From Acidobacteriaceae bacterium (GTDB lineage Bacteria > Acidobacteriota > Terriglobia > Terriglobales > Acidobacteriaceae): DNA of 64,000 bases. A program made the translations under genes and the position numbers. The stretch spans positions 1 through 64,000 of the forward strand of contig JANYBT010000130.1 of the NCBI GenBank assembly GCA_025360645.1. Reading direction: 5' to 3'. The notes under the pieces are model-generated. The model worked only from the letters and a program-made list of their open reading frames with translations. It made no database searches and was not told the DNA's origin. This document shows, piece by piece, positions 38,246-59,245 of the stretch (positions are counted from its first letter, which is position 1; each line of letters begins with the position of its first letter).

Positions 38246-39514
38246 ATGAGTGCAGCATCTGCGGTGCAAACCAACCGGAGCGCGTTGTGGGAGCAATATT
38301 GTACGGTGCGCCAAGCTTCCATGAAGCTGGCCTCGCGTCTGAGTGCAGAAGACCAGATGGTGCAATCCATGGCAGACGCCAGCCCGACCAAGTGGCATTT
38401 GGCGCACACCACGTGGTTCTTCGAGACATTTATCTTGTTGCCCCACGCCGCAGGCTACCGGGCGTTTGATCCCCGATTCACTTTTCTCTTCAATTCCTAT
38501 TACAAGTCGCTGGAGGAGGGGCATCCGGTGCGGGCCACGCGAGGGACGTTCTCGCGGCCTAGCCTGATAGATGTGCACGCGTACCGGGCGCGGGTAGATG
38601 AAGCGATGGAAAAACTGGTGGCGACAGAGGCCGCAGAAACCGTGGCCGACTTGCTGGAACTGGGCCTACATCACGAGCAGCAGCACCAGGAATTGATTCT
38701 CACGGACATCAAGCACGGGTTATGGACCAACCCGCTGCGGCCGGCATATTGCGAGGCCACGGCGACGCCGGAAACTGCGATCGCTCCCGTGCGATGGATC
38801 GAATTTGACGGCGGCCTGTACGAAATCGGGCATAGCGGCGTCGTCTTTGCATTCGACAACGAAGGACCGCGGCATTCCGTCTTTTTGCGGCCATTCCAGT
38901 TGGCGTCGCGACCGGTGACCAACGCGGAGTTCCTTGAATTTATGCACGAGGGCGGGTACCGGCGTCCGGAGCTGTGGCTATCGGAGGGATGGGATACGGT
39001 TTGCGCGGCTGGATGGAAGGCGCCCTTTTACTGGGAACCACGCGACGGGGAGTGGCATGTCTTCACCACTGCCGGCATGCAGCCAGTGCGAGAAGACGAA
39101 CCGGTGTGCCACATCAGCTTCTTTGAGGCCGATGCGTATGCGCGCTGGGCGGGAGCCCGGTTGCCCTTGGAAGCCGAGTGGGAAGTCACTGCCAACGGTG
39201 TGGAAGTGGCGGGAAATTTCGTCGAGAGCGAGCGCTTTCATCCCGCCCCATCGATTGCGAAGGGCGACTTGAAACAGCTCTATGGAGACGTTTGGGAGTG
39301 GACCGCAAGCCCGTACCTCGCCTATCCCGGATTTCGCGCGCCCCAAGGTGCGCTCGGCGAGTACAACCAGAAGTTCATGTGTAATCAGTTGGTCCTGCGC
39401 GGCGGATCGTGCGCCACGCCACAATCGCACATCCGGGACACTTACCGGAATTTCTTTCCACCAGCAGCGCGGTGGCAATTTATGGGGTTAAGGCTAGCCA
39501 ATGATCGCAATTGA
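38246..39514 (+). CDS. egtB: Ergothioneine sulfoxide synthase EgtB
   Basis: The 422-residue protein has a DinB-like N-terminal domain and a formylglycine-generating-enzyme-type C-terminal domain. It is a non-heme iron enzyme that joins a cysteine derivative to hercynine. The three-His site is visible: W50-H51-L-A-H and H143-E-Q-Q-H147-Q-E149 (HX3HXE). The C-terminal half has EWEVTANG, YGDVWEWTASPY and RGGSCATPQSHIRDTYRNF. No egtA (glutamate-cysteine ligase) or egtC is nearby. The EgtB of the acidobacterium Chloracidobacterium thermophilum is known to take free cysteine, and the same could hold here. The egtD start overlaps its end. Confidence 0.95.
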   Translation: MSAASAVQTNRSALWEQYCTVRQASMKLASRLSAEDQMVQSMADASPTKWHLAHTTWFFETFILLPHAAGYRAFDPRFTFLFNSYYKSLEEGHPVRATRGTFSRPSLIDVHAYRARVDEAMEKLVATEAAETVADLLELGLHHEQQHQELILTDIKHGLWTNPLRPAYCEATATPETAIAPVRWIEFDGGLYEIGHSGVVFAFDNEGPRHSVFLRPFQLASRPVTNAEFLEFMHEGGYRRPELWLSEGWDTVCAAGWKAPFYWEPRDGEWHVFTTAGMQPVREDEPVCHISFFEADAYARWAGARLPLEAEWEVTANGVEVAGNFVESERFHPAPSIAKGDLKQLYGDVWEWTASPYLAYPGFRAPQGALGEYNQKFMCNQLVLRGGSCATPQSHIRDTYRNFFPPAARWQFMGLRLANDRN

Positions 39515-40454
39515 GCAACAGCGGGTTTCTGAAATTGCCGAAGATGTGTTTGCGGGGCTGAGCGGGCAGCCAAAGTCTTTGCCGGCGAAGTTGTTCTATG
39601 ACGCAGCCGGCTCCGATCTGTTCGAGCAAATCACGCAGCTGCCGGAATACTACTTGACTCGCGCGGAAACAGAAATCCTCGCCCGAAGAGCGGGAGATAT
39701 TTGCCACCGCGCCGGACTCGGCCTGACCGTAGTGGAACTGGGAGCGGGCACCGCGCAAAAAACCCGGCTCTTGCTGCAGGCGTTAAGCAAGCGGCAGTTG
39801 ATCGTGCCCTATGTTCCGGTGGACGTGTGCGAGCCTGCCCTGCGGGAAGCGGCGGATGCGCTGGAACGCGACTATCCGGCGGTGCGGGTCCGTCCGCAAG
39901 TGAGCGACTTCAGCGACTTGGGATTTCTGCGACACACGCGAGCCCCACGGCTGGTGCTGTACATCGGCTCCAGCATTGGAAACTTCGATCCCCCCGATGC
40001 GCTGGCTCTGATGCGCCGATTGCGCGCAGAGTTGAGCGAGGGCGACCATCTGCTACTCGGGACGGACCTGGTAAAGGACCGCTCCGTGCTAGTTCCAGCT
40101 TATGACGACGCGGCTGGGGTGACTGCGAGGTTCAATAAGAATGTGCTGGCGCGCATCAACCGGGAACTGGGCGGACAGTTCGATCTCGACCAGTTTGAAC
40201 ACGTGGCGCGGTGGAATCCAGAGGCTTCGCGTATGGAAATGTATTTGCGAAGCCGGTGCGACCAAGCAGTCAGAATTGCTCAACTGGAGATGACCGTAAC
40301 GTTCGCTGCGGGCGAATTGCTGCACACGGAAAACAGTCATAAATACACGGTTCCAGGAGTGCGCAGAATGTTGTCCGAGTCAGGCTATGCGTTGACCCAC
40401 ACTTGGACCGATGCGCGCGAGTGGTACGGAGTGAGCTTGGCAAAAGTGGTGTAA
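39501..40454 (+). CDS. egtD: L-histidine N-alpha-methyltransferase EgtD
   Basis: The 317-residue SAM-dependent enzyme trimethylates histidine to hercynine, the EgtB substrate. The SAM loop VVELGAGTAQKTRLLL (from about residue 75) and the downstream LVLYIGSSIGNFDPPDAL and LLLGTDLVKDRSVL are typical. The start overlaps the end of egtB by 14 bases, so translation is probably coupled. The egtB-egtD order without other egt genes fits a minimal pathway; a lyase such as EgtE must be elsewhere. Confidence 0.96.
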   Translation: MIAIEQQRVSEIAEDVFAGLSGQPKSLPAKLFYDAAGSDLFEQITQLPEYYLTRAETEILARRAGDICHRAGLGLTVVELGAGTAQKTRLLLQALSKRQLIVPYVPVDVCEPALREAADALERDYPAVRVRPQVSDFSDLGFLRHTRAPRLVLYIGSSIGNFDPPDALALMRRLRAELSEGDHLLLGTDLVKDRSVLVPAYDDAAGVTARFNKNVLARINRELGGQFDLDQFEHVARWNPEASRMEMYLRSRCDQAVRIAQLEMTVTFAAGELLHTENSHKYTVPGVRRMLSESGYALTHTWTDAREWYGVSLAKVV

Positions 40455-40508: not shown

Positions 40509-40916
40509 ATGAAAATTTGGGTGTGCGGCCTCATTGTTGCGCTCGTGGGGATGCTGGGGCCAGTTGCGCACGGCCGGAGCAGTTCCCACCACGCCAGCGG
40601 CAGTTCACACTACACTTCGCACAGTCGCAGTAGCTCTCACCATTCCAGCGGAACGTCACATCACAGTTCCCACAGAGCCACCGGCGAGCCACGCGACCGG
40701 CATGGACGCATCCGCAGAAGCCGGGTCGCGCGCAGTTCCTTCGAGCACTCTCACCCCTGCCCCGCCACGGGGAAAAGTTATGGCCGCTGTCCAGGATATG
40801 TGGTGGATCACGTCCGGCCACTGGAATGTGGTGGGCCGGATTCTCCCACCAACATGCAATGGCAGACCGCGGCCGCGGCCCATGCGAAAGACAAGACCGA
40901 AACCAGTTGCCGTTAG
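40509..40916 (+). CDS. Secreted small HNH-like protein with a Ser/His-rich linker
   Basis: The product has 135 residues. A signal peptide (MKIWVCGLIVALVGMLGPVA) precedes about 35 residues of almost only Ser, His, Gly and Thr (SSSHHASGSSHYTSHSRSSS). The last 75 residues look like a small HNH nuclease: HPCPATGKSYGRCPGYVVDH, then VRPLECGGPDSPTNMQWQT and AAAAHAKDKTE. Conserved features are the DH pair and the Asn in the final loop. Exported HNH-like proteins of this size are found in various Proteobacteria, but their role is not clear. It may cut extracellular DNA, or bind metal through the His-rich part. GGGGAGAG precedes the ATG. The stop overlaps the convergent NAD-synthetase-like gene by four bases. 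Confidence 0.8.
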   Translation: MKIWVCGLIVALVGMLGPVAHGRSSSHHASGSSHYTSHSRSSSHHSSGTSHHSSHRATGEPRDRHGRIRRSRVARSSFEHSHPCPATGKSYGRCPGYVVDHVRPLECGGPDSPTNMQWQTAAAAHAKDKTETSCR

Positions 40917-41953
40917 TCCGGGGGACAAGCCGTATTCTTTTTACGGGCGTCGTTTTCGGGAATGACGCTCAATCTAACTGTCTCGAAGATCACCGGAGCG
41001 AGGTGCAGATAGCGGGCGGATCTTCGCTTGGCGTCAATCATCTCGTACACCCGGGCGACTTGCTGTTCCGTGAATTCCACTACTGGCGACAGCTCGCAGG
41101 CGGGAATCGAGTGGTCTTTGCCGTAGAGGCAGAGATCCATCTTGTCCAGCGGCATGGAGAAGTAGAACTCTTCTTGCGACTGCTCCAGGGAATACGTGTC
41201 GGTGGTAGGAGGGCGGCGCTGGATTTCTTGCGGGATACCTAATGCAGCGGCAAGCTGATACACCTGCGACTTGTAGAGGTGCGCAATCGGCTTCAGGTCG
41301 GCTGCGCCGTCGCCGTTCTTCACGAAGAATCCCTGGTCGTACTCCAGGCGGTTGGGGGTGCCCGCCACAGCGAAATGGTAGCGATCGGCGTAATAGTACT
41401 CCATCATTTTGCGAACGCGCTGCTTGAAATTGGTGGCGGCGAGGATGCCTAGATAAGCGTCGAGGGAAAGCCGGACCTTGGTAGTTTTTCCCGCCGGCGA
41501 TTTGACCAACAGGGAGAAAACCGCATAGCGGTCCGCCTCAATCAGGTTGGGCAACACGATCTTGGACTTGTAGCCTTCGCCATATCCGGGGACGGCACTG
41601 CGCATGGCCTCATCGCGCCGACGATAACATCCCGCGCCCACCAGGATGGGTGTAATGTCCTCGTGGAAGCAGCGGACGCCCAACCAATTCGCCAGCAACT
41701 GCCCCAGTTTGAGACTATCGGGCGACGATTCCAATTCCGGCATGAGGAGCGCAATGACTTTCTCTGGTCCCAGGGCCCGGGCGCAGAGGGCTGCGACCAC
41801 GCTGCTGTCAATCCCGCCAGAGACTCCGACCACCGCGCCCTTGCGGCGGAACTGCACCAGAATCGTTTCCCGGATCGCGCTACAGATGTGGTCGATTTCG
41901 GCGAAGGCGTCAATCCTCAGAATCTCGTTGGTTGAAGCCAGCATGGTGTCCAT
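40913..41953 (-). CDS. nadE: NAD synthetase family protein (NH3-dependent type) at the end of the exopolysaccharide locus
   Basis: The 346-residue protein has the ATP-pyrophosphatase loop V-S-G-G-I-D-S-S (44-51) and the NadE-type block GTPNRLEYDQGFFVKNGDGA, then ADLKPIAHLYKSQVYQLA. There is no glutaminase domain. NadE adenylates and amidates nicotinate adenine dinucleotide with ammonia. At about 270 residues usual NadE is shorter; here a C-terminal extension carries FYFSMPLDKMDLCLYGKDH. GGGAGG lies six bases before ATG 41953, while the ATG at 41959 overlaps it, so 41953 is the start. Its place after an AMP ligase, acyl carrier protein and asparagine synthase suggests it may amidate something other than NAD; housekeeping NadE remains possible. 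Confidence 0.85.
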   Translation of the reverse strand: MDTMLASTNEILRIDAFAEIDHICSAIRETILVQFRRKGAVVGVSGGIDSSVVAALCARALGPEKVIALLMPELESSPDSLKLGQLLANWLGVRCFHEDITPILVGAGCYRRRDEAMRSAVPGYGEGYKSKIVLPNLIEADRYAVFSLLVKSPAGKTTKVRLSLDAYLGILAATNFKQRVRKMMEYYYADRYHFAVAGTPNRLEYDQGFFVKNGDGAADLKPIAHLYKSQVYQLAAALGIPQEIQRRPPTTDTYSLEQSQEEFYFSMPLDKMDLCLYGKDHSIPACELSPVVEFTEQQVARVYEMIDAKRRSARYLHLAPVIFETVRLSVIPENDARKKNTACPPD

Positions 41954-41986
41954 GAACATCCTCCCTGGAGTGAAGCAAGTTTGGGT

Positions 41987-42799
41987 TTACAGATTTGAGA
42001 CCAGCAGTAGCAGTTTGCGAGCCACAGCGACCCGACCTTTCTGATTCAAATGACCGCCGTCGGTGGTGAACTCGGGGGCCAGGGAGTAAATGGTTTCTCC
42101 ACCCTGGGTGAAGGACTCGCGCGAGCCGTCCGAGTGGGTGGACTCGGCCTCAGCCAAGTCGAAGATGGGATCCGCAGCATACGTCTGCTTCAGCAGACGG
42201 TTGAATTGGTTTCGTTTTTGATTGGCATCGCGCAAGGTTGGTCTGCCCATCGCTGACTTGAGAAATGCGTTAAGCGAAGAGTCGGACGTGGTCAGCGGCA
42301 CAGTGACGTGCGCCAGGGTCAGCGCGGGATGTGCGGCTTTCGCGGCGGCGATGGTCTTGCGGTAGCCGGCGAACAACTGCCCCACATCGGTGCTGGAATC
42401 GACATCGGCATAACAATACTTGAACAAAGCGATGCCGTGCCGCTGGCCACACCCGCGGAGTGCGTTCAAAAATGCCTGATTCTTGGATTGCGGGTCGCCG
42501 TTCTCGCCCAGTTCGGCATGAATGAATGCTGAATCGCTTTCCGCAGCCGGATCGGAAGAAGCAACCAACCTCAAACCAGGCTCGGACACCATCAGCTCGC
42601 GGATGCCTTCGACGATGTTTTCGCCTACGGCTCTGTGTCCGAGGAAGATGGTCTTTGTGGTCAAGCTCTGGATCTGTGCATCGCTGAGCATGGACTCGTT
42701 GGCCCTCGGGGATGGAGCCATCTTTTTCCCTCCGCACGCAAGCGTCACCGCCACCAGGCAGATGGAGATGCTGCTCATGAGATTTCGTGGAGCGGTCAT
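41987..42799 (-). CDS. SGNH-hydrolase-like lipoprotein
   Basis: The product has 270 residues. The signal peptide ends in a lipobox (VAVTLAC, Cys near residue 22). The mature part has IFLGHRAVGENIVEGI at its start and DGGHLNQKGRVAVARKLLLL at its end, the second being the Asp-x-x-His block of SGNH/GDSL esterases. Ala stands in the first block where related sequences often have Ser, so an esterase mechanism is not assured. The ATG at 42799 overlaps the stop of the AMP ligase gene by four bases. It may remove or transfer acyl groups on the exopolysaccharide at the membrane. Confidence 0.65.
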   Translation of the reverse strand: MTAPRNLMSSISICLVAVTLACGGKKMAPSPRANESMLSDAQIQSLTTKTIFLGHRAVGENIVEGIRELMVSEPGLRLVASSDPAAESDSAFIHAELGENGDPQSKNQAFLNALRGCGQRHGIALFKYCYADVDSSTDVGQLFAGYRKTIAAAKAAHPALTLAHVTVPLTTSDSSLNAFLKSAMGRPTLRDANQKRNQFNRLLKQTYAADPIFDLAEAESTHSDGSRESFTQGGETIYSLAPEFTTDGGHLNQKGRVAVARKLLLLVSNL

Positions 42800-44289
42800 C
42801 GCTCGACGACCTCTGCCACCCAAGCGTGGGGCAAGCCGGCTTTCAAGACTTTGCCCGAGCTGTTCTTGGGAAGAGCCTTGAGGACGAAAAACTGCCGAGG
42901 AAGCAGCGGCAGGGGCAAACGCTCGCGGCAATCATTGCGCAGATGCTCGGGGCTGGGGTGGTGCTCGGGGTCGCGAGGCACGACGTAAGCCACGGCGGCC
43001 TCGCCCAGCACCTCGTCGGGAACGCCCACTACGGAGGCCTCCAACAAGTCTCCTTGCTCCAGCAGCAGGTTCTCCAATTGTCGGCAACTGACTCGGGTAC
43101 CGCCGCACTTCAAGAAGTCCTTCGCGCGGCCCACAATGTAAATGAACCCCTCGGCATCCACCGTGGCCAGATCTCCGGTATAAAGCTTGCCATCGCGAAA
43201 ACACTGCTCCGTTTCTTCCGGGGCGTCCCAGTAGCCAAGCGTAACGTTGCGGCCCTCGGCAACAATTTCGCCGGTATGCCCGGAGCCAACCGGCAGGCCT
43301 ACGCTGTCGAGGACGCTCAGGGTGACGCCGGGAATTCCCTTTCCGATTGAGCCCATTTTTTGCTCGACCAGTTCGGGTGGAAGACAGGACAGGCGGGCCG
43401 TGGCTTCGGTCTGGCCGTACATGATGAAAACTTGTTTGCCGGGAAGCGCCTGTCGGAGCTCTTTGATAAATGCTGGCGCCAACTGTCCCCCCGCCTGCTG
43501 CACATAGCGCAGGTGCGGCAAATCCATCCGGGCGAGGTTGGACTTGCGCAGCAGGATTTGAAAATGACTGGGCACTCCGGCAAAACCGGTGCACGCGGTC
43601 TCCTGCATCCTCAGCAAGACTTTTTCCGGATACAGGAAGCGCTGGTCAATCACCACACTGCCACCGGCGCGAAGGTGAGTGTGCAGGAGCGAAGTTCCAA
43701 AACAATAGTGAAAGGGCAAGACCGCCATGATGCGGTCCCTGTTCGTCAGCGAGAGGCACTCGATAATGGACTCGGTGTTGGCAATGATATTGCCGTGCGA
43801 CACCATGACCCCGCGCGGCTGGCCCGTGGAACCGGAGGTAAACATCAGGGCCGCGAGGTCGTTCACCTGGGTTTCCGGCAACGAGACGCTTTTCCCATTG
43901 GGCGTCAAACTGCTGGCCGGAATGCCAGACAAGACCACCGTGGAGCGCAACTGCTCCGCATGCAGAGCGGCATATTTGGCTGGCGCCAATGCGAAACGCG
44001 CCCCGCTCATGGCGACAATGTATTGCAGCTCCGCGGCGCTGGTGCGAGGCGGTACAGGAACCGCAACCAGCCCGGCACGTAGCACACCCAGATAAGCCGC
44101 AACCCAAAACAAGCCGGGATCAGCCAGCAACACAACGCGGTCACCCTTTCGGCTACCGGCGGCCAACAGCCATGCGGCCAGCGCGTAGGCTGAGGCCCGC
44201 ACTTCCGCATAGCTGGCATCCCCCTGCAACGTGAGTAGCGCGGCAGCGGAAGCCTTGCCGTTCTCCAGCAAATAGTCGCAAGCGTTCAC
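42796..44289 (-). CDS. AMP-forming acyl-CoA/acyl-carrier ligase
   Basis: The 497-residue adenylate-forming enzyme has the P-loop LMFTSGSTGQPRGVMVSHGN (near residue 150), YGQTEATARLS, YTGDLATVDAEGFIYIVGRA with the hinge Asp, and the C-terminal catalytic Lys in LPKNSSGKVLK. It activates a carboxylic acid and loads it on CoA or on the carrier protein encoded just upstream. The family matches acyl ligases known from exosortase-type exopolysaccharide loci. The start is GTG 44289, with AGGAG nine bases before it. The substrate is unknown. Confidence 0.9.
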   Translation of the reverse strand: MNACDYLLENGKASAAALLTLQGDASYAEVRASAYALAAWLLAAGSRKGDRVVLLADPGLFWVAAYLGVLRAGLVAVPVPPRTSAAELQYIVAMSGARFALAPAKYAALHAEQLRSTVVLSGIPASSLTPNGKSVSLPETQVNDLAALMFTSGSTGQPRGVMVSHGNIIANTESIIECLSLTNRDRIMAVLPFHYCFGTSLLHTHLRAGGSVVIDQRFLYPEKVLLRMQETACTGFAGVPSHFQILLRKSNLARMDLPHLRYVQQAGGQLAPAFIKELRQALPGKQVFIMYGQTEATARLSCLPPELVEQKMGSIGKGIPGVTLSVLDSVGLPVGSGHTGEIVAEGRNVTLGYWDAPEETEQCFRDGKLYTGDLATVDAEGFIYIVGRAKDFLKCGGTRVSCRQLENLLLEQGDLLEASVVGVPDEVLGEAAVAYVVPRDPEHHPSPEHLRNDCRERLPLPLLPRQFFVLKALPKNSSGKVLKAGLPHAWVAEVVER

Positions 44290-44321
44290 AAAGTAACACT
44301 CCTAGTTTGATCGCACTCGGG

Positions 44322-44624
44322 TCATGGGGCAGCCTGGAGCACTTGCGTAGCCGCGAACCCCGCCACTTTCCCAGCCTGCCTCCCTTTGCGCGCAAGGTAG
44401 GCAGCAATACGATTGACCGAATCCAGGTTGTCCGGGACCAGTTCCGCCTCCGTGATCTGGATTCCGTAGGTGTCTTCCAAAAAGGTCACCAGCTCCAGAA
44501 TGCCGGTGGAGTCGATGAGCCCCTGATCGAGGAAGGAATCGTCGTCGTTGAGCACAGCGTCGGGAGCGAACAGGAAGTTCGCTACGATGAAGTTGTGCAC
44601 TTCTCCAGTAATTGTGGATGCCAT
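44322..44624 (-). CDS. Acyl carrier protein
   Basis: The product has 100 residues. It is an acidic four-helix carrier with the phosphopantetheine site D38-S39-T40 in FLDQGLIDSTGILELVTFLE. The C-terminal tail of about 20 residues (KGRQAGKVAGF and on) is longer than in ordinary ACP. GGGAG lies six bases before the ATG. The first 43 bases of the gene lie inside the end of the asparagine synthase gene. It is almost surely the partner of the AMP ligase downstream. Confidence 0.92.
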   Translation of the reverse strand: MASTITGEVHNFIVANFLFAPDAVLNDDDSFLDQGLIDSTGILELVTFLEDTYGIQITEAELVPDNLDSVNRIAAYLARKGRQAGKVAGFAATQVLQAAP

Positions 44625-46552
44625 AGAGAGCTCCCTGGGTGTGGATGAATGAATTGGTCAATGAGGAGTCCAGTGGAAACAATGGCGACTGCGGCCATAT
44701 TGTCTTTGGTGCTATGCGCGCGTCCGGTTGCAAATTTCGCAACCAACGCGGCGACCGCTGCAGGATGAAAAATCCCGTCTCTTCGAAGTCGCTCAGGGGA
44801 TAGATACTCTTTCACATAATCCCACCCCTGCCCCAGCAGAGCTTGGCCGTCCGGGGCGCGATAGGGTTGTTTGACGCGCTTCTGGACAGAAGCTGGAATC
44901 AGGCCGCTTGCAGCTTGTTTCAACAAGTGCTTCTGGTCAAGAACTTTCATCTTCAGGTTGGGCGGTAACTTGGCGGCGAAGTCCACCACGCGGTGATCGA
45001 GGAAGGGATGGCGCGATTCGACCGAATGCGCCATGGCCATCCGGTCGCCCTGCGACGAAAGAATGTAGCCCGGTAGCAGCATCGTCGCTTCCAGGTATTC
45101 TGCCTGGTTAAAGGGCAGCCACGACGCGAATGACGGAGGCAGAGCGCGGTCCAGCCGTTCCATCGCATCGGACGTGCCGATTCCCTGCCGCACTTCTTCA
45201 GAGAAAAACATCTTTAGCTTCGCGGTCAGTTCCCAGCGCGGCAAGTGGGAAAACCAGGGGCTGACCAGATCCGAAGGCGTGACCCGAAAAAAACGCTGCA
45301 AATATTGCGGAGACTGTTTCTGCAGATCTTCCAGATACGGGTACAGGCGCTTCAGCAAGAGTGGACGGCGGCGCGATTCCAGATCCCGGGCCCAGAAGCG
45401 TCTGACTTTGGCCTCTTTGAAAACGTCGTAGCCACCCAGAGTCTCGTCGGCGCCTTCCCCGCTGAGCACGACTTTGAAGCCATTTTCGCGGACTAGTTGC
45501 GAAAGCAAGAAGAGTGGCGCGGGTGCGGTGCGGAGAATCGGTTGCTCGCAATGCCAGATCACTTCCGGAAAGGCAGCGGCAATGTCCTGCTGGGTGCAGT
45601 GCCGTTCAGAGTGCTGGTTGCGCAGAAACGCGCAGGCCTCGCGCTGATAGGCGCTCTCGTCAAATTCTCCATCGGCAAAGCTGACGGAAAATGTTCGCAA
45701 CCGGTCTCCTGCCAGGGATCGGGTCAGGGCCGCGATTAACGTGGAGTCCAAACCACCACTCAGGTAGGTTCCTACCGGAACGTCGGAACGCAGTCGGATG
45801 CGGGTCGCATCCAGCAGCAGGTCCAGCAGATCTGCTGTGAGCCGATTCTCCGCGTCCTCCGCGCGATAGCTATCTGGCGCGTACTCCAGGTTCCAGTACG
45901 ATTGCACGCGCACCCTTCCCTCTTGCACTACCATCGAGTGACCGGGGGGCAGCTGCGAGATATTGCGAAATGCAGTGCGTGGCGGCAGTGTGACCCAAAA
46001 AGTAAAGATCTGGTCCAGCCCTAGTAGGTCGAGTGCGCGCTCGACCTCTGGACACGTGAACAGCGCCTTGATTTCAGATGCGAACAGGAAAGCGCCGTCG
46101 GCCCACGTATAAAACAACGGCCGTACCCCCATGCGATCACGCGACAGAAACAGCTTATGCTGATCCGCATCCCAGATGGCAAACGCCCACTGCCCATTCA
46201 GCTTTTGTACACACTCCTCCCCCTCTTGCTGGTACAAGTGGAGCAGGACTTCGGTGTCGGACCGGGTGCGGAACTTGTGTCCTTTCTGGATGAGTTCCTC
46301 CCGCAGCTCAACATAGTTGAAAATCTCGCCGTTAAACGTGATCGTGAGCTTGCCGTCCACCGTGGACATGGGTTGGCCGCCGCCCTCCAAATCAATGACG
46401 CTGAGGCGCGCGTGGGCTAAGCCTGCTTCCCGGTCGCAGTAGACGCCCCTCGCATCCGGGCCGCGGTGAGACAGGGCGGTCACCATGCCAATGAGCCGGC
46501 CTGGGTCCGCTAGCTTCCCGTGGGCTTGTAGAATTCCGCTGATGCCGCACAT
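44582..46552 (-). CDS. asnB: Glutamine-hydrolysing asparagine synthase family protein
   Basis: The 656-residue enzyme starts at M-C2-GISGILQ, where Cys2 is the glutaminase nucleophile. The N-terminal half has LSHRGPDARGVY and TFNGEIFNYVELREEL. The synthetase half has the ATP loop GTYLSGGLDSTLIAAL and SGEGADETLGGYDVF. Ordinary AsnB makes Asn from Asp; relatives in exosortase-type loci are thought to amidate a sugar or acyl intermediate. Lying directly before an acyl carrier protein gene in an exopolysaccharide operon, the second role is likelier. The C-terminal 14 residues overlap the acyl carrier gene. Confidence 0.92.
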   Translation of the reverse strand: MCGISGILQAHGKLADPGRLIGMVTALSHRGPDARGVYCDREAGLAHARLSVIDLEGGGQPMSTVDGKLTITFNGEIFNYVELREELIQKGHKFRTRSDTEVLLHLYQQEGEECVQKLNGQWAFAIWDADQHKLFLSRDRMGVRPLFYTWADGAFLFASEIKALFTCPEVERALDLLGLDQIFTFWVTLPPRTAFRNISQLPPGHSMVVQEGRVRVQSYWNLEYAPDSYRAEDAENRLTADLLDLLLDATRIRLRSDVPVGTYLSGGLDSTLIAALTRSLAGDRLRTFSVSFADGEFDESAYQREACAFLRNQHSERHCTQQDIAAAFPEVIWHCEQPILRTAPAPLFLLSQLVRENGFKVVLSGEGADETLGGYDVFKEAKVRRFWARDLESRRRPLLLKRLYPYLEDLQKQSPQYLQRFFRVTPSDLVSPWFSHLPRWELTAKLKMFFSEEVRQGIGTSDAMERLDRALPPSFASWLPFNQAEYLEATMLLPGYILSSQGDRMAMAHSVESRHPFLDHRVVDFAAKLPPNLKMKVLDQKHLLKQAASGLIPASVQKRVKQPYRAPDGQALLGQGWDYVKEYLSPERLRRDGIFHPAAVAALVAKFATGRAHSTKDNMAAVAIVSTGLLIDQFIHPHPGSSLWHPQLLEKCTTSS

Positions 46553-46599: not shown

Positions 46600-47298
46600 T
46601 TAGGAGACAGCGGCCTCTTGAGGCAAGGTTGCAGCTTCGGCGGGACGGGCCGCGCCCAGCACCCATCGCTGGTCCGCGCCGTCCCATTGCTTTACGATGC
46701 GTGCCGGATTCCCGGCAATGACGCAGTAGGCGGGAAAGCTGCGGGTCACTAACGCGTTGGCAGCCACCACACTGTTCCGCCCAATCACCAACTGCCCATG
46801 GCCGCAAATGATCGCAGCCCCGTGCCCAATCCAGCACCCGCACTCAATTCGAATCTGCCCGCCGGTCGTCAAACCCTGCTCCTCCACCGGCAAGCGTGGA
46901 TCGGAATAGGAATGATTGTGGTCCATCAGCAGGACGGAAGGCGAGATGCTGACGTCGCGTTCCAGGTGGATACAGTTCTTCGCCGAAATCTGCGTCCATC
47001 GTCCAATCCGAACCCGGTCGTCCAGAACAATCACTGGGGTATCCAGGTTGGCCTCGTCCGCAACATTCAGCCACACTCCTGGGGCGATCAACACGGAGTT
47101 CCCCAGCTTCATGCCTACAGCGTGGGGACGCCGGAGTTCGCAGGTGCAGTGCACCGACAAATCCCGGCCCACAGACGCGAAGGGGTAGGTGGTCCGCAGC
47201 CATTGGCTGTGCAGCCAGTTCCATGCCCATGACACCCACTCTAGCGGATCTTCCATGGGCTGCCGCAACTTACGGTTGCAGTAATTCGCATCGCTCAT
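46600..47298 (-). CDS. Hexapeptide-repeat sugar O-acyltransferase
   Basis: The 232-residue protein has an N-terminal helix region (RQPMEDPLEWVSWAWNWLHS) and a left-handed beta-helix of hexapeptide repeats (KLGNSVLIAPGVWLNVADEA, DHNHSYSDP with the catalytic His, CWIGHGAAIICGHGQLVIG). It ends with FPAYCVIAGNPARIVKQW, typical of the WbbJ/maltose acetyltransferase group. It probably acetylates a sugar of the exopolysaccharide. GGAGG six bases before ATG 47298 fixes the start; the gene then overlaps the glycosyltransferase end by 29 bases. Confidence 0.88.
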   Translation of the reverse strand: MSDANYCNRKLRQPMEDPLEWVSWAWNWLHSQWLRTTYPFASVGRDLSVHCTCELRRPHAVGMKLGNSVLIAPGVWLNVADEANLDTPVIVLDDRVRIGRWTQISAKNCIHLERDVSISPSVLLMDHNHSYSDPRLPVEEQGLTTGGQIRIECGCWIGHGAAIICGHGQLVIGRNSVVAANALVTRSFPAYCVIAGNPARIVKQWDGADQRWVLGAARPAEAATLPQEAAVS

Positions 47299-48565
47299 GG
47301 CTGGCCTCCGGTGCCGAGTTACCGGGAGAAGGTTGGAACGGTGGGGGGGCCTCGCACCACAGCGCGGGCGGCACCCGTTGTACCGGGGCACAGGTGCGGA
47401 AACAACCGCTAACCAGGGAATCCACCAGATCCACATACAGCGACTGGTTTTGTTCCCAGGTGAAACGTTGCACGAAATGAAACGCGCGGCCTGCGAGTTG
47501 CTCCCGCAAGTCTGGATCGTGAGCCAGCGAGAGCATCGCCGACGCCATGCTCTCAGTGTTGCCACTGTCAAAAAACTTCACTACCGCCGGATTGAAGTAG
47601 TAGCGGTCGACCCGGGTACTGGAAACTACTACGGGAACCCTCAGACACATGAACTCAAGAATCTTGGTGCTGAAAGCTTCGTTGCCGAAAGAGTCGGCTC
47701 GCTTGGGCACCACCCCGAGGTCCGCATTCTCCATGACTTTCGCCACCTCGCGCAGGGGAGTCACGCCGAGGAAATGAACTTGGGATTCGAGGCTCAAGCT
47801 GCGGACCAGTTCCTGCAAATTGGCCTTTTCTCCGCCCTCTCCGTAGATGTGAAATTCAGCCAACGGCACCTGCTCGCGAAACCGTGCGAAGGCTCGGATC
47901 GCGATGTCCAACCCCTGATGGAAGTTCAGACTGCCGGGAAAGATGATCACGAACTTTTCATTCTTCGGACCTCGGCCGCGCGGCCGGAAGACCGAGGTGT
48001 CGGGATAGTTCAGTTCGACCGAGCACTTGCCTGCCGCCGCCGACCGCTTCACCACTCGTTCTAGCCATAAATGGTTAGCCAGAATCACATGGTCGGCAAA
48101 GTGGACCGAGAGTCGTTCGGTCCAGACCAGCGCTCGGAAAATCCACGATTGGTCGCTTCGCTTGAACTTGTTGGCGTAAAACTCCGGCAGGACATCGTGG
48201 ATGTCAAGGATGAGCTTGGCCCCGGTCCACTTGGGAAACCAGGCGGCGAACACCAGAAAATCCGGCACGTTATGGACATGCACCAGGTCATAGGGACGCC
48301 GCCAATGGCGCACGCTAAGCACCACCATCGAGATCAGAAAGAAACTCACCAGCTTCGCCAGGTACACCAGCTTCGCTTGCTCCCCTTTTGTCCTGAGTTG
48401 TACGCGAAGGACGTTCACGCCGTTTATCCGTACCCGCGCCGACTCTCCCGGCCGTCGCAACGAAATGACATCGACAATATCGCCGCGCCGGGCCAGAGTT
48501 TCGGCATAGCGCATCACTCGGTTGTCGCTCTCGTAGAAGGTGTAGGCGAGCATGCATGCGTTCAT
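47270..48565 (-). CDS. GT4-type glycosyltransferase
   Basis: The product has 431 residues and a GT-B fold. The N-terminal part has YDLVHVHNVPDFLVFAAWFP and LILDIHDVLPEFY. The C-terminal part has IIFPGSLNFHQGLDIAIRAF, IYGEGGEKANL and the EFMCLRVPVVVS donor loop, preceded by AFSTKILEF. It transfers a nucleotide-linked sugar on the inner face of the membrane during repeat-unit assembly. AAAGGA precedes the ATG at a normal distance. The C-terminal 45 residues are Pro/Cys-rich and lie beyond the usual fold. Confidence 0.9.
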   Translation of the reverse strand: MNACMLAYTFYESDNRVMRYAETLARRGDIVDVISLRRPGESARVRINGVNVLRVQLRTKGEQAKLVYLAKLVSFFLISMVVLSVRHWRRPYDLVHVHNVPDFLVFAAWFPKWTGAKLILDIHDVLPEFYANKFKRSDQSWIFRALVWTERLSVHFADHVILANHLWLERVVKRSAAAGKCSVELNYPDTSVFRPRGRGPKNEKFVIIFPGSLNFHQGLDIAIRAFARFREQVPLAEFHIYGEGGEKANLQELVRSLSLESQVHFLGVTPLREVAKVMENADLGVVPKRADSFGNEAFSTKILEFMCLRVPVVVSSTRVDRYYFNPAVVKFFDSGNTESMASAMLSLAHDPDLREQLAGRAFHFVQRFTWEQNQSLYVDLVDSLVSGCFRTCAPVQRVPPALWCEAPPPFQPSPGNSAPEASHERCELLQP

Positions 48566-56520: not shown

Positions 56521-57750
56521 TCATACCCCCACCAATACTTGCTGACCACACTCCTGCAGGCACTCCTGCATACACTTCTGGACTGCGTCCACCACGCGCT
56601 CGATCTGCTCCGGCCGCAATTGTGGATACATCGGGAGCGAAAGAATTTTCGAGGCCAACCCTTCCGCCATTGGAAAATCTCCTGCCCGGAAACCGCGATG
56701 GGCATACGCTTTCTGCAGGTGAAGCGGGATGGGGTAATGAATTCCAGTGCCAATGCCGGCTTCGCTCAGAAACCGGCGCAAGGCTTCCCGATGAGGCGTG
56801 CGCACCACATACAAGTGGTACACCGCCCGGCTCCATGACGGCTCGAAGGGCACGGTCAACCCTGCCACCGACGCCAGCCTGCTGTTGTAGGCCAGCGCAT
56901 GCGCGCGCCGCTGCCGGTTCCAGTCTTCCAGATGCCGCAGTTTGATACGCAGAATTCCCGCCTGGATCGCGTCCAGCCTGCCGTTGTAGCCTTCGATGTC
57001 GTGATAATACTTCTCAGCTTGGCCGTGCTCGCGCAACACCCGAACCCGGCGGGCGATTTCCGGATCCTGGGTCGTCACCGCGCCCGCTTCTCCGCAAGCG
57101 CCCAGATTTTTGCCCGGATAGAAACTGAATGCGGCTGCCCGCCCCATCGAACCGGCCGTCCGCCATTCCTTGGTTCGGTTCGAGAAATAGCGCGCCCCGT
57201 GAGCTTGGCATGCATCTTCCACCACGATCAGACGATGGGCTTCCGCCAGCTCGCAGATCGCATCCATGTCCGCAGTCTGCCCATACAAATGGACGGGCAC
57301 CACCGCGCTCACCACTCTGCCCGTCTGCCGGTGAATGGTCTTCCCGCGGGCTTTGTCAGCCCAGCATCTGGTTTGCAGATACTCGCGCAGTTTCTCCACA
57401 TCCAGGTTGCAGGTGCGCGGATCCACGTCCACAAAATCCGGCCACGCCCCCGCCTGGGAAATGGCTTCCGTGGTCGCAATGAAGGTATGCGGCACCGTGA
57501 TCACGATTTGGTCCGGACCAACCCCCGCTGCGATCAATGCGAAACGCAGCGCATCGGTGCCGCTGCTCACGCCCACGCAGTGCGAGGTCTCGCAGAAACG
57601 GGCGAACTCGTTTTCAAACTCCTCCACCATTGGCCCGCCAATGAATGCGCCCCGGGTCAGAGCGGTGCGAAACACCTCGACTAACTCGGCCTCCAACTCC
57701 CGGTGCGGAGCCACCAAATCAAGAAATGGAATGTTCGGATTCTGAGTCAT
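56521..57750 (-). CDS. DegT/DnrJ/EryC1-type sugar aminotransferase (WbpE-like)
   Basis: The 409-residue PLP enzyme has the internal-aldimine Lys K214 in FSFYPGKNLGACGEAGA, the PLP Asp D179 in VVEDACQAHGA, and VSSGTDALRFAL. It transfers an amino group to a keto nucleotide sugar. With the oxidoreductase and acetyltransferase genes upstream it forms the WbpB-WbpD-WbpE-like set for a 3-amino (later 3-acetamido) uronic acid. The start overlaps the acetyltransferase stop by four bases. The C-terminus has the internal repeat MQECLQEC from a small DNA duplication near 56546. Confidence 0.93.
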   Translation of the reverse strand: MTQNPNIPFLDLVAPHRELEAELVEVFRTALTRGAFIGGPMVEEFENEFARFCETSHCVGVSSGTDALRFALIAAGVGPDQIVITVPHTFIATTEAISQAGAWPDFVDVDPRTCNLDVEKLREYLQTRCWADKARGKTIHRQTGRVVSAVVPVHLYGQTADMDAICELAEAHRLIVVEDACQAHGARYFSNRTKEWRTAGSMGRAAAFSFYPGKNLGACGEAGAVTTQDPEIARRVRVLREHGQAEKYYHDIEGYNGRLDAIQAGILRIKLRHLEDWNRQRRAHALAYNSRLASVAGLTVPFEPSWSRAVYHLYVVRTPHREALRRFLSEAGIGTGIHYPIPLHLQKAYAHRGFRAGDFPMAEGLASKILSLPMYPQLRPEQIERVVDAVQKCMQECLQECGQQVLVGV

Positions 57751-58244
57751 GATGCCTGGCTCACTTCTGGCGTAATGTAACGCAGCAGCCGCGCCGGATT
57801 GCCTGCCACAATGGAGTTCGCTGGCACATCGCGCGTTACCACGCTGCCCGCGCCCACCATGGCGTTTTCTCCGATCACTATGTTGGCGAGAATGGTCGAG
57901 CCGGAACCGATGGACGCCCCCTCCATCACCAGCGTGCGCTCCAGTTTCCAGTCTTTCTCGGTCTGCAACTCGCCGCCCAACCCCGTCGCTCGCGGGTAGC
58001 TGTCGTTGATGAAGACCACGCCGTGCCCGATGAATACGTTGTCTTCAATGGTCACACCCTCACAAATGAAGGTGTGGCTGGAAATTTTGCATCGCCTCCC
58101 AATGTGCGCGTGCTTCTGCACCTCCACGAAAGCGCCAATCTTGGTTTCGTCTCCGATTTCGCAGCCGTACAGATTGATGAACTTTGAGAGCCGCACCCCA
58201 GCCCCCAGGGTTACGTCCGCTCCGATGCTTAAGTACTGCTTCAT
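57747..58244 (-). CDS. Hexapeptide N-acetyltransferase (WbpD/WlbB-like)
   Basis: The 165-residue protein is almost only a left-handed beta-helix: LGAGVRLSKFINLYGCEIGD, KIGAFVEVQKHAHIGRRCKI, SSHTFICEGVTIEDNVFIGH with the catalytic His region, and GVVFINDSYPRA. It ends with PANSIVAGNPARLLRYI. Length and motifs fit acetyltransferases that act on UDP-3-amino-uronic acids. It overlaps both neighbours by four bases, so the three genes are translated as a unit. Confidence 0.92.
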   Translation of the reverse strand: MKQYLSIGADVTLGAGVRLSKFINLYGCEIGDETKIGAFVEVQKHAHIGRRCKISSHTFICEGVTIEDNVFIGHGVVFINDSYPRATGLGGELQTEKDWKLERTLVMEGASIGSGSTILANIVIGENAMVGAGSVVTRDVPANSIVAGNPARLLRYITPEVSQAS

Positions 58245-59245
58245 AGCTCCACCAGTTCCCCTCTGTGCTTGACCGAACGATCGGCGGCCTCCAGCATGCT
58301 GACCACTCGCCAGCCTGCCTTACCGTCGTTGCGCGGGCACGTATTGTTGGTGATGCAGTTCACAAAGTGTTCCAACTCGTTCTTCAACGCTTCCCCATGC
58401 TCCAACTGGGGCGCCCACATGTCGCCCGACCGGTATTTCACCAGCAGTTCGTAAATACCCTCCTGGCTGGTCGCCTTTTCGACACCCTTGTCGTACACCC
58501 GGATCTTCTCGTCCGCTTCCAGGTCGTTCCACACCAGCATTTTCTTTTCCCCTCCAATCAGCGTAGTGCGGACTTTCACCGGAGACAGCCAGTTCACATT
58601 GATGTGCGCAATGATGTTGTGGGGAAAGTAATAGGTCAGAAAAGCCACGTCCTCCAGGCCATTGAGGTGCTTTTCCGCAGTCGCCACCACCGCATTGGGC
58701 TTGTCGCTGATCACATAGTCCATGATGGCCAGATCGTGCGGCGCCAGATCCCAGATCACGTTTACGTCGTGCTGAAACAGTCCCAGATTCACTCGGGTCG
58801 AGTCGTAGTAATAGAGACCGCCCAGAGTGCCGTCCTCGATCAGTTGCCGGATCTTCTTCACCGCTCCGGTAAACAGGAAAGTGTGGTCCACCATGATTTT
58901 CAAATTCTTCTGCTCGGCCAGATTGACCAATTCCTCGGCCTGCACGGAAGTAAAAGTAAACGGTTTCTCCACGAAAACGTGTTTGCCTTCTTGCAGCGCT
59001 GCCTTGGCCAGATCGAAGTGGGTCCAAACCGGCGTCACCACCGCCACTACATCGATATTGGGAGAGCGGATCAGTTCACTGCAATCCTCGGTGACCTGCA
59101 CCTGCGGAAAAGCCTGCTGCACCCGCTGCCGTGCTCCCGCACACTTGTCGCACACCATCACCACTTTCGAGAGCTCTCCACAACTGAAGTTCCGAACGAT
59201 ATTGGGTCCCCAGTATCCATACCCGATCACGCCGACGCGAATCAT
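58241..59245 (-). CDS. Gfo/Idh/MocA-type nucleotide-sugar oxidoreductase (WbpB/WlbA-like)
   Basis: The 334-residue oxidoreductase has the NAD site VGVIGYGYWGPNIVRNF, the EKP motif in GKHVFVEKPFTFT and the second-domain VDHTFLFTGAVKKIRQLI. It would oxidise C3 of a UDP-N-acetyl-glucuronate, giving the substrate for the aminotransferase. The GlcNAc-6-dehydrogenase (WbpA type) that supplies it is not in the window. GAAGGAG lies five bases before the ATG. The 82-base gap upstream contains no clear promoter. Confidence 0.93.
   Translation of the reverse strand: MIRVGVIGYGYWGPNIVRNFSCGELSKVVMVCDKCAGARQRVQQAFPQVQVTEDCSELIRSPNIDVVAVVTPVWTHFDLAKAALQEGKHVFVEKPFTFTSVQAEELVNLAEQKNLKIMVDHTFLFTGAVKKIRQLIEDGTLGGLYYYDSTRVNLGLFQHDVNVIWDLAPHDLAIMDYVISDKPNAVVATAEKHLNGLEDVAFLTYYFPHNIIAHINVNWLSPVKVRTTLIGGEKKMLVWNDLEADEKIRVYDKGVEKATSQEGIYELLVKYRSGDMWAPQLEHGEALKNELEHFVNCITNNTCPRNDGKAGWRVVSMLEAADRSVKHRGELVEL

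What the first reader, a model, noticed from the sequence alone, without database searches (positions are those of the whole stretch)
40913..46552. AsnB, acyl carrier protein, AMP ligase, SGNH-like lipoprotein and NadE homologue as one decoration module
These five genes are contiguous and partly overlapping at the end of an exopolysaccharide operon. An acid would be activated by the ligase, loaded on the carrier and amidated by one or both of the amide-forming enzymes (AsnB and NadE families), then transferred or trimmed by the lipoprotein. Amidotransferase, ligase and ACP are known in exosortase-type loci. The NadE relative with its C-terminal extension, and the SGNH-like protein, add an unusual end point.
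Basis: partly seen in the sequence, partly recalled or inferred. Interest (0 to 1): 0.7.

Follow-up and report, generated by a model that had tools for sequence, protein, structure and literature searches.

The report
NadE-like amide synthetase in exopolysaccharide cassette
Five neighbouring genes form a mobile-looking cassette for decorating a cell-surface polysaccharide, and one of them, a relative of the enzyme that makes the cofactor NAD, has most likely been turned to a different amide-forming job there and is mislabelled as NAD synthase in databases.

Summary
The five genes are real, intact and contiguous. The NadE homologue is an NF002048/PRK00876 protein. It is not the housekeeping NAD synthetase: the genome has a separate 547-aa glutamine-type NadE, and 35 of 35 searched genomes with the homologue (34 distinct) carry another NadE. 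It is sporadic: 8/150 genomes of the family, 38/396 of the phylum, 10/118 of a Nitrospira family. It forms a clade apart from 30 canonical NadEs (100/100) and has a ~66-residue stretch where they have ~18. A module partner (ACP, AMP ligase, AsnB or SGNH) lies near it in 70 of 75 stretches from several phyla, against 0 of 20 around canonical nadE. NadE fold and core catalytic residues are kept. Best reading: an ammonia-dependent amide synthetase serving the ligase/carrier route of polysaccharide decoration; substrate unknown. The SGNH fold is supported, but the window copy has Ala where 15 of 15 other full copies have the presumed nucleophilic Ser. The exosortase link is weak: none beside the module here, and 19 of 22 XrtW genomes lack the homologue.

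The parts
44582..46552 (-). AsnB-type glutamine amidotransferase (656 aa), complete: Cys2 glutaminase start MCGI and SGGLDS synthetase loop
   Evidence: sequence
44322..44624 (-). acyl carrier protein (100 aa) with LIDSTG attachment site; overlaps AsnB by 43 bp
   Evidence: sequence
42796..44289 (-). AMP-forming acyl ligase (497 aa, GTG start), window type ('type B')
41987..42799 (-). SGNH-fold exported protein (270 aa from ATG); ATGA overlap with the ligase stop at 42796-42799
42629..42631 (-). GCC codon, Ala57 (GHRAVG) at the presumed catalytic Ser of SGNH block I (GHxSVG in 15 of 15 other full copies)
40913..41959 (-). NadE-like N-type ATP pyrophosphatase (348 aa), NF002048/PRK00876
41804..41821 (-). 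SGGIDS P-loop of the NadE-like protein
41447..41644 (-). conserved insertion region of the NadE-like protein (residues 106-171; 65-69 residues in the homologues, 13-18 in 30 canonical NadEs)
46600..47571 (-). hexapeptide-repeat acyltransferase directly upstream of AsnB (true start probably later); possible acceptor-side transferase
56521..59245 (-). aminotransferase, hexapeptide acetyltransferase and Gfo/Idh dehydrogenase of a diamino-sugar (Wbp-like) route in the same polysaccharide operon

Best explanation
The five genes are the decoration cassette at the end of an exopolysaccharide operon. Shown: conserved gene linkage, a separate housekeeping NadE, an intact N-type ATP-pyrophosphatase core. 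Inferred: the ligase activates an organic or amino acid as an adenylate and loads it on the carrier protein. AsnB, using glutamine, and the NadE-like enzyme, using ammonia, each turn a carboxylate into an amide, the NadE-like one on the acid handled by the ligase/carrier route (for example the free carboxylate of a dicarboxylyl or aminoacyl group on ACP or CoA). A cytosolic acyltransferase (hexapeptide or GNAT/FemAB type) then puts the amidated acyl group on a sugar before export. The SGNH protein is an exported accessory, in relatives an esterase or acyltransferase on the finished polymer; the window copy has probably lost that catalysis. The NadE-like protein is therefore a repurposed NadE, not an NAD synthetase.
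For: A separate NadE in 35 of 35 searched genomes (34 distinct). Sporadic presence: 8/150, 38/396, 10/118. Partner near the NadE-like gene in 70/75 stretches (LIG 62, ACP 59, AsnB 54, SGNH 16) against 0/20 around canonical nadE (Fisher p 3e-16 on rows that are not phylogenetically independent). Phyla by record title: Acidobacteria, Nitrospira, Planctomycetes, Verrucomicrobia, Fibrobacteres, Latescibacterota, one MAG titled Proteobacteria. Reverse test: 6 of 8 phylum genomes with a close relative of the window AsnB (the window genome among them) carry the NadE-like gene, against 38/396 overall. Own clade 100/100. Catalytic core kept: SGGxDS, N177, R181, R183, T201, N203, E206, G216, D217, K230 near-invariant in both groups; K214 and D221 as in ammonia-type NadEs. 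NadE fold, Z 27.6 to Francisella NMN synthetase. 57 of 75 stretches hold two amide-forming genes: 54 NadE-like plus AsnB, and 3 (L125, L128, L129) two NadE-like genes without AsnB.
Against: No substrate or product is known. 5 of 75 stretches have no partner (L041 and L045 from one MAG, L137, L139 on a short contig, L149). 21 stretches lack a detected AsnB and 13 a ligase, so no partner is universal; in 3 genomes with AsnB-ACP-NadE-like (those of L033, L037, L040) no TIGR03098-type ligase was found at E 1e-80 (the window's own ligase would only just pass that). The idea that the insertion is a basic ACP-docking surface was tested and not supported: mean net charge +1.2. Keeping the NaAD-site residues leaves NAD synthesis possible.
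Confidence: 0.45

Rival explanations
1. The NadE-like enzyme (with AsnB) amidates a uronic acid carboxylate on a nucleotide sugar, giving a uronamide; the ligase and carrier serve a separate N-acylation of the same sugar (a Wbp/Vim-like linking sugar).
For: The window operon has Gfo/Idh, aminotransferase and hexapeptide acetyltransferase genes of a diamino-sugar route. AsnB-type WbpS makes a uronamide and VimA (FemAB-like) adds an amino acid to a Wbp sugar in Porphyromonas gingivalis (PMC7468200, passages read). Nitrospira loci carry XrtA-type FemAB and deacetylase genes. In L143 and L145 a nucleotide-sugar-dehydrogenase-like protein (by eye, not tested) follows the NadE-like gene.
Against: WbpS-type AsnB alone does this in P. 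gingivalis, so a second enzyme is not needed. The common partners of the NadE-like gene are ligase and carrier, not sugar-nucleotide genes.
Confidence: 0.22
2. It is a second, functional NAD synthetase (as NF002048 names it), recruited by chance or for local NAD supply.
For: NF002048 is named NAD(+) synthase and is well above cut-off; NaAD-site residues of ammonia-type NadEs are largely kept; closest fold match is an NMN synthetase.
Against: Every searched host has another NadE; distribution is sporadic; partners are polysaccharide-decoration genes in 70/75 stretches; a conserved ~48-residue insertion.
Confidence: 0.1
3. The NadE-like enzyme is itself a carrier-loading enzyme: it adenylates the acid and passes it to ACP, with the ligase activating a second acid.
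For: ACP and NadE-like genes occur without the ligase in L032, L033, L037, L040, L042 and L047, in L047 also without AsnB; 3 of 6 of these genomes gave no TIGR03098-type ligase; Nitrospira loci fuse two different ligases.
Against: No NadE-fold enzyme is known to me to load a thiol carrier; the ammonia-type NadE residues are kept; other AMP ligases in those genomes could do it; several contigs are short.
Confidence: 0.08
4. Amidine or other N-C bond formation on an N-acyl sugar, as done by the related N-type ATP pyrophosphatase WbuX/PseA family (relation recalled).
For: A WbuX-like gene (173 bits, cut-off 203) lies beside the module in L127.
Against: Only one stretch was seen; WbuX-type proteins are a different family.
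Confidence: 0.05

Closest known systems
NF002048 / PRK00876 'NAD(+) synthase' subfamily (NCBIfam)
   Same: Window protein scores 490.9 bits over a cut-off of 313; this is its family.
   Different: The family name assigns NAD synthesis; distribution, context and insertion found here argue for another role.
NH3-dependent NAD synthetase NadE (e.g. 2e18, 1xng, 1nsy) and Francisella NMN synthetase 3fiu
   Same: Fold, P-loop, catalytic core.
   Different: Internal insertion, separate clade from the 30 canonical NadEs tested, always beside another NadE in the genome, cassette context.
XrtA/PEP-CTERM exopolysaccharide set: TIGR03108 amidotransferase, TIGR03098 ligase, carrier
   Same: AsnB + ligase + carrier at the end of an EPS operon; the same contig has XrtA-type chain-length and export proteins.
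   Different: AsnB 432 bits (cut-off 817) and ligase 321 bits (cut-off 592) fall below cut-off; no exosortase beside the module; a NadE-like member and SGNH protein added.
Wbp/Vim linking-sugar pathway (WbpS, VimA, VimE) of Porphyromonas gingivalis, PMC7468200
   Same: Diamino-sugar genes, AsnB-type amidotransferase, acyl/aminoacyl transfer to a sugar.
   Different: No ligase, ACP or NadE relative appears in the passages read.
Malonamyl-ACP starter formation by AsnB-type amidotransferase plus discrete ACP (oxytetracycline, glutarimide polyketides)
   Same: Logic: activated dicarboxylate on a carrier amidated by an AsnB relative (recalled; only search listings seen).
   Different: No polyketide synthase beside the window module; NadE relative absent there as far as I recall.
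Dlt system (DltA ligase, DltC carrier, DltD SGNH fold)
   Same: Ligase + carrier + SGNH-fold exported protein (Dlt composition recalled).
   Different: No MBOAT found among 19 Pfam-scanned genes; amide-forming enzymes present.

Membership tests
NF002048 (PRK00876) | score above the curated cut-off of 313 bits | tested here: met
   490.9 bits, residues 7-329
Housekeeping NadE | only or main NAD synthetase of the genome | tested here: not met
   separate 547-aa NadE in G000; other NadE in 35 of 35 searched genomes
Housekeeping NadE | N-type ATP-PPase loop and catalytic residues | tested here: met
   SGGxDS, N177, R181, R183, T201, E206, D217, K230 shared
Housekeeping NadE | groups with canonical NadE in a tree | tested here: not met
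   41 NadE-like and 30 canonical rows split 100/100; 28 of the 30 canonical rows form one cluster apart from L051/L052, so ammonia-type NadEs are hardly sampled
Housekeeping NadE | makes NAD from NaAD | not testable with these tools
   needs an assay
TIGR03108 XrtA-associated amidotransferase (AsnB) | score above 816.9 bits | tested here: not met
   432.4 bits; TIGR01536 cut-off met (525 over 267)
TIGR03098 exosortase-associated ligase | score above 592.35 bits | tested here: not met
   320.9 bits in the window; Nitrospira double ligase 822 bits for the whole protein
Exosortase/PEP-CTERM locus | exosortase beside the module | tested here: not met
   none among 19 Pfam-scanned genes; the genome's exosortase is on contig C122. 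Met in XrtW-bearing Nitrospira loci
SGNH hydrolase | SGNH fold | tested here: met
   Foldseek E 2.1e-6, probability 1.00, to a sialate O-acetylesterase
SGNH hydrolase | block I Ser and block V DxxH | tested here: not met
   DxxH kept in 10 of 10 rows; window Ser replaced by Ala, 15 of 15 other full copies keep it
Dlt D-alanylation system | MBOAT partner (DltB) | tested here: not met
   no MBOAT hit in 19 scanned genes; carrier at 16.1 bits against a DltC cut-off of 52.35
Wbp/Vim linking-sugar pathway | WbpA/B/D/E, WbpS, VimA, VimE set | tested here: inconclusive
   B/D/E-like genes present at superfamily level; UDP-sugar dehydrogenases only on other contigs; VimA/VimE relation not tested

The most novel reading that the evidence does not exclude
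A branch of the NadE family (NF002048), spread over several bacterial phyla and called NAD(+) synthase in databases, is an amide synthetase that has left NAD metabolism and works on a carrier- or ligase-activated acid in polysaccharide decoration cassettes, often alongside a second amide-forming enzyme (AsnB or a second NadE-like copy).
Probability: 0.5. Interest if true: 0.75.

Novelty: new variant of a known kind. Interest (0 to 1): 0.6.

Why it matters
If true, an enzyme family taken as a marker of NAD synthesis has a branch with another substrate, and many 'NAD(+) synthase' entries are misnamed. It would also give a gene signature and an enzyme to test for the unknown acyl and amide substituents of exopolysaccharides, including some exosortase-linked ones, in environmental bacteria such as Acidobacteria and Nitrospira.

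Tried and rejected
C-terminal extension as the key feature: rejected; it is short and poorly predicted, the internal insertion is the conserved difference.

Basic insertion as ACP-docking surface: mean net charge +1.2 (sd 2.0), not supported.

NadE-like as a component of the exosortase system: 3 of 10 NadE-like Nitrospira-family genomes have XrtW and 19 of 22 XrtW genomes lack it, so it follows the cassette, not the exosortase. A third search in the same 118 genomes with TIGR03098 at E 1e-150 was set too strict to be informative.

Hexapeptide acyltransferase as a constant member: 21 of 75 stretches against 1 of 20 controls; suggestive only, since such genes are common in polysaccharide clusters.

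VOC (methylmalonyl-CoA-epimerase-like) gene as a substrate clue: 2 of 75 stretches; kept as a passing note.

Promoters/terminators: no sigma-70-like site and a chance-level number of terminators; nothing concluded.

Papers: searches for NAD synthetase or nadE with exosortase/exopolysaccharide/carrier terms gave no paper on such a module in the listings; searches gave background. Passages were read in PMC7468200, PMC3376133, PMC6946656 and PMC7196632; PMC1569441 was searched within for six terms, none found. For all others only the listing was seen. Subscription papers are not in the library.

Motif patterns: a strict pattern for the ligase A10 lysine matched only 28 of 60; not used. B. subtilis NadE residue numbers and the Dlt and OxyD comparisons are from memory.

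L041/L045 and L031/L032 come from one MAG each. The ACP profile used for the counts was rebuilt from ACPs first found in these same loci, so its hits there are partly by construction; the control stretches were scanned with the same profiles.
Full report
Observation. The window carries, on the minus strand, five intact and tightly packed ORFs: AsnB 44582-46552, ACP 44322-44624, AMP ligase 42796-44289, an SGNH-like protein 41987-42799 and a NadE homologue 40913-41959. AsnB and ACP overlap by 43 bp and the ligase stop overlaps the SGNH start as ATGA. Family scans support four of them. The SGNH-like protein has no Pfam or NCBIfam match, but its AlphaFold model (pLDDT 83) matches SGNH esterases, best a sialate O-acetylesterase (E 2.1e-6, probability 1.00) and also the peptidoglycan O-acetyltransferase PatB. 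Upstream lies a polysaccharide operon with glycosyltransferases, Wzx, initiating sugar transferase, deacetylase and diamino-sugar genes, and further up the contig XrtA-type chain-length (277.9 bits, cut-off 278.85) and export (142.8 bits, cut-off 180) proteins, both just below cut-off.

The NadE homologue is not the housekeeping enzyme. The genome has a 547-aa NadE on contig C14. In 35 searched genomes that carry the homologue (34 distinct, G164 being G087), all have another NadE over the TIGR00552 cut-off, nearly all of the long two-domain kind. The homologue is an accessory gene: 8 of 150 genomes of the family, 38 of 396 of the phylum, 10 of 118 of a Nitrospira family; among 14 control genomes only Methanosarcina acetivorans has it over cut-off. 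In a tree of 41 homologues and 30 canonical NadEs from the same genomes the two groups split with 100/100 support; ammonia-type NadEs are hardly represented in that tree, so the branching order within the whole NadE family is not settled.

Co-occurrence. Of 75 stretches, 62 have a ligase, 59 a carrier, 54 an AsnB and 16 an SGNH relative; 53 have carrier and ligase, 42 carrier, ligase and AsnB, 12 all four; 70 have at least one. By set: 33 of 35 and 37 of 40. Around canonical nadE in the same kinds of genome, 0 of 20 stretches hold any of the four. Stretches are not independent by descent, and some are cut by contig ends. The order of genes changes (AsnB-ACP-ligase-SGNH-NadE here; AsnB-ACP-NadE-ligase-SGNH in L034; AsnB-SGNH-ACP-NadE-ligase in L146), while the set stays together. 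In the reverse direction, 6 of 8 phylum genomes with a close relative of the window AsnB (the window genome among them) carry the NadE-like gene; in G219 and G252 the two lie on different contigs.

Variants. In Nitrospira the order is AsnB, ACP, a fused double ligase, NadE-like, exosortase XrtW, SGNH, FemAB. The two halves of the fused ligase belong to two ligase types. Some phylum genomes have two NadE-like genes, near an SGNH gene, and no AsnB within the stretch (L125, L128, L129). L032 has FabA-like, reductase and aminoglycoside-acetyltransferase-like genes in place of the ligase. L047 has only ACP and NadE-like, beside a B12 radical SAM gene. The exosortase is not a required partner: of 22 XrtW genomes among 118, 3 have the NadE-like gene.

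Structure and residues. The NadE-like model (pLDDT 84) is a NadE fold (Z 27.6 to Francisella NMN synthetase, 27.4 to 2e18). The P-loop SGGxDS and N177, R181, R183, T201, N203, E206, G210, G216, D217 and K230 are near-invariant in homologues and canonical enzymes alike, and K214, D221 and P224 match ammonia-type NadEs. From memory these correspond, with an offset of 44, to B. subtilis residues that touch ATP or NaAD. The clear difference is the stretch between residues 106 and 171: 65-69 residues in 74 homologues, 13-18 in 30 canonical enzymes, with invariant Y112, R114 and G157. It is a helix and three strands in the model. I infer that it reshapes the substrate side of the active site.

SGNH protein. 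Block I reads GHxSVG in 15 of 15 other full-length copies and GHRAVG in the window (codon GCC); the truncated L017 ORF was not counted. DxxH is kept. It is the only copy found in the genome. The window protein is therefore probably not an active SGNH enzyme, or uses another nucleophile; a sequencing error at one base is not excluded.

Mechanism. Shown: linkage, accessory status, intact catalytic motifs of AsnB (SGGxDS in 54 of 54 module AsnBs, MCG start in 52 of 54) and NadE-like, and ligase domains. Inferred: ligase and ACP activate an acid; AsnB and NadE-like each form an amide; a cytosolic acyltransferase moves the product to a sugar. Amidation of an acid on a carrier by an AsnB relative has precedent in polyketide starters (recalled). 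Uronamide formation by the AsnB relative WbpS and amino-acid transfer by FemAB-like VimA are described for P. gingivalis (PMC7468200, passages read), and that paper itself links these genes to exosortase loci. I favour the ligase/carrier acid as substrate of the NadE-like enzyme because ligase or carrier is near it in 68 of 75 stretches; a nucleotide-sugar uronate is the main rival.

Novelty. AsnB, ligase and carrier in exopolysaccharide loci are known (NCBIfam names AsnB and ligase relatives so). I found no description of the NadE-like member in the searches listed, within an open-licence library only. I rate it a new variant of a known kind.

Noticed in passing
L125:3803-10572, L128:6436-9270, L129:3681-6300: Two NadE-like genes in one locus (in L125 and L128 from different subclades) and no AsnB in the stretch.
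   Followed up: partly
L027:6741-9884 and the same gene in seven other loci (six Nitrospira MAGs, one Nitrospiraceae): Two different AMP ligase types fused in one ~1047-aa protein between ACP and the NadE-like gene.
   Followed up: partly
L115:5822-6256 and L146:5329-5751: Methylmalonyl-CoA-epimerase-like VOC protein beside the module and a hexapeptide acyltransferase (74 and 62 bits, below the cut-off of 115), a possible hint at a dicarboxylic acyl substrate.
   Followed up: partly
L032:6580-8892: Second carrier protein, FabA-like dehydratase, FabG-like reductase and aminoglycoside-3-acetyltransferase-like gene between ACP and NadE-like where others have the ligase.
   Followed up: partly
L127:10475-11548: WbuX-like N-acetyl sugar amidotransferase beside SGNH, NadE-like and ligase genes.
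   Followed up: no
L018:12549-20891: A 2780-aa ORF on the other strand, matching the ligase profile, next to the module; perhaps a nonribosomal peptide synthetase.
   Followed up: no
window 38246-40454, plus strand: Two ORFs that look like EgtB and EgtD of ergothioneine synthesis (by eye, not tested) just beyond the module.
   Followed up: no
window 46600-47571: The ORF call for the hexapeptide acyltransferase overlaps the upstream glycosyltransferase ORF (47270-48565) by about 300 bp, so its real start is probably later.
   Followed up: no
G000:C122 28649-29410, 44633-44905, 51400-51945: The genome's exosortase, an AsnB-family gene and a UDP-sugar dehydrogenase within 24 kb on another contig: a separate polysaccharide locus.
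   Followed up: no
control genome Methanosarcina acetivorans: The only one of 14 control genomes with an NF002048 protein over cut-off; its neighbourhood was not seen.
   Followed up: no
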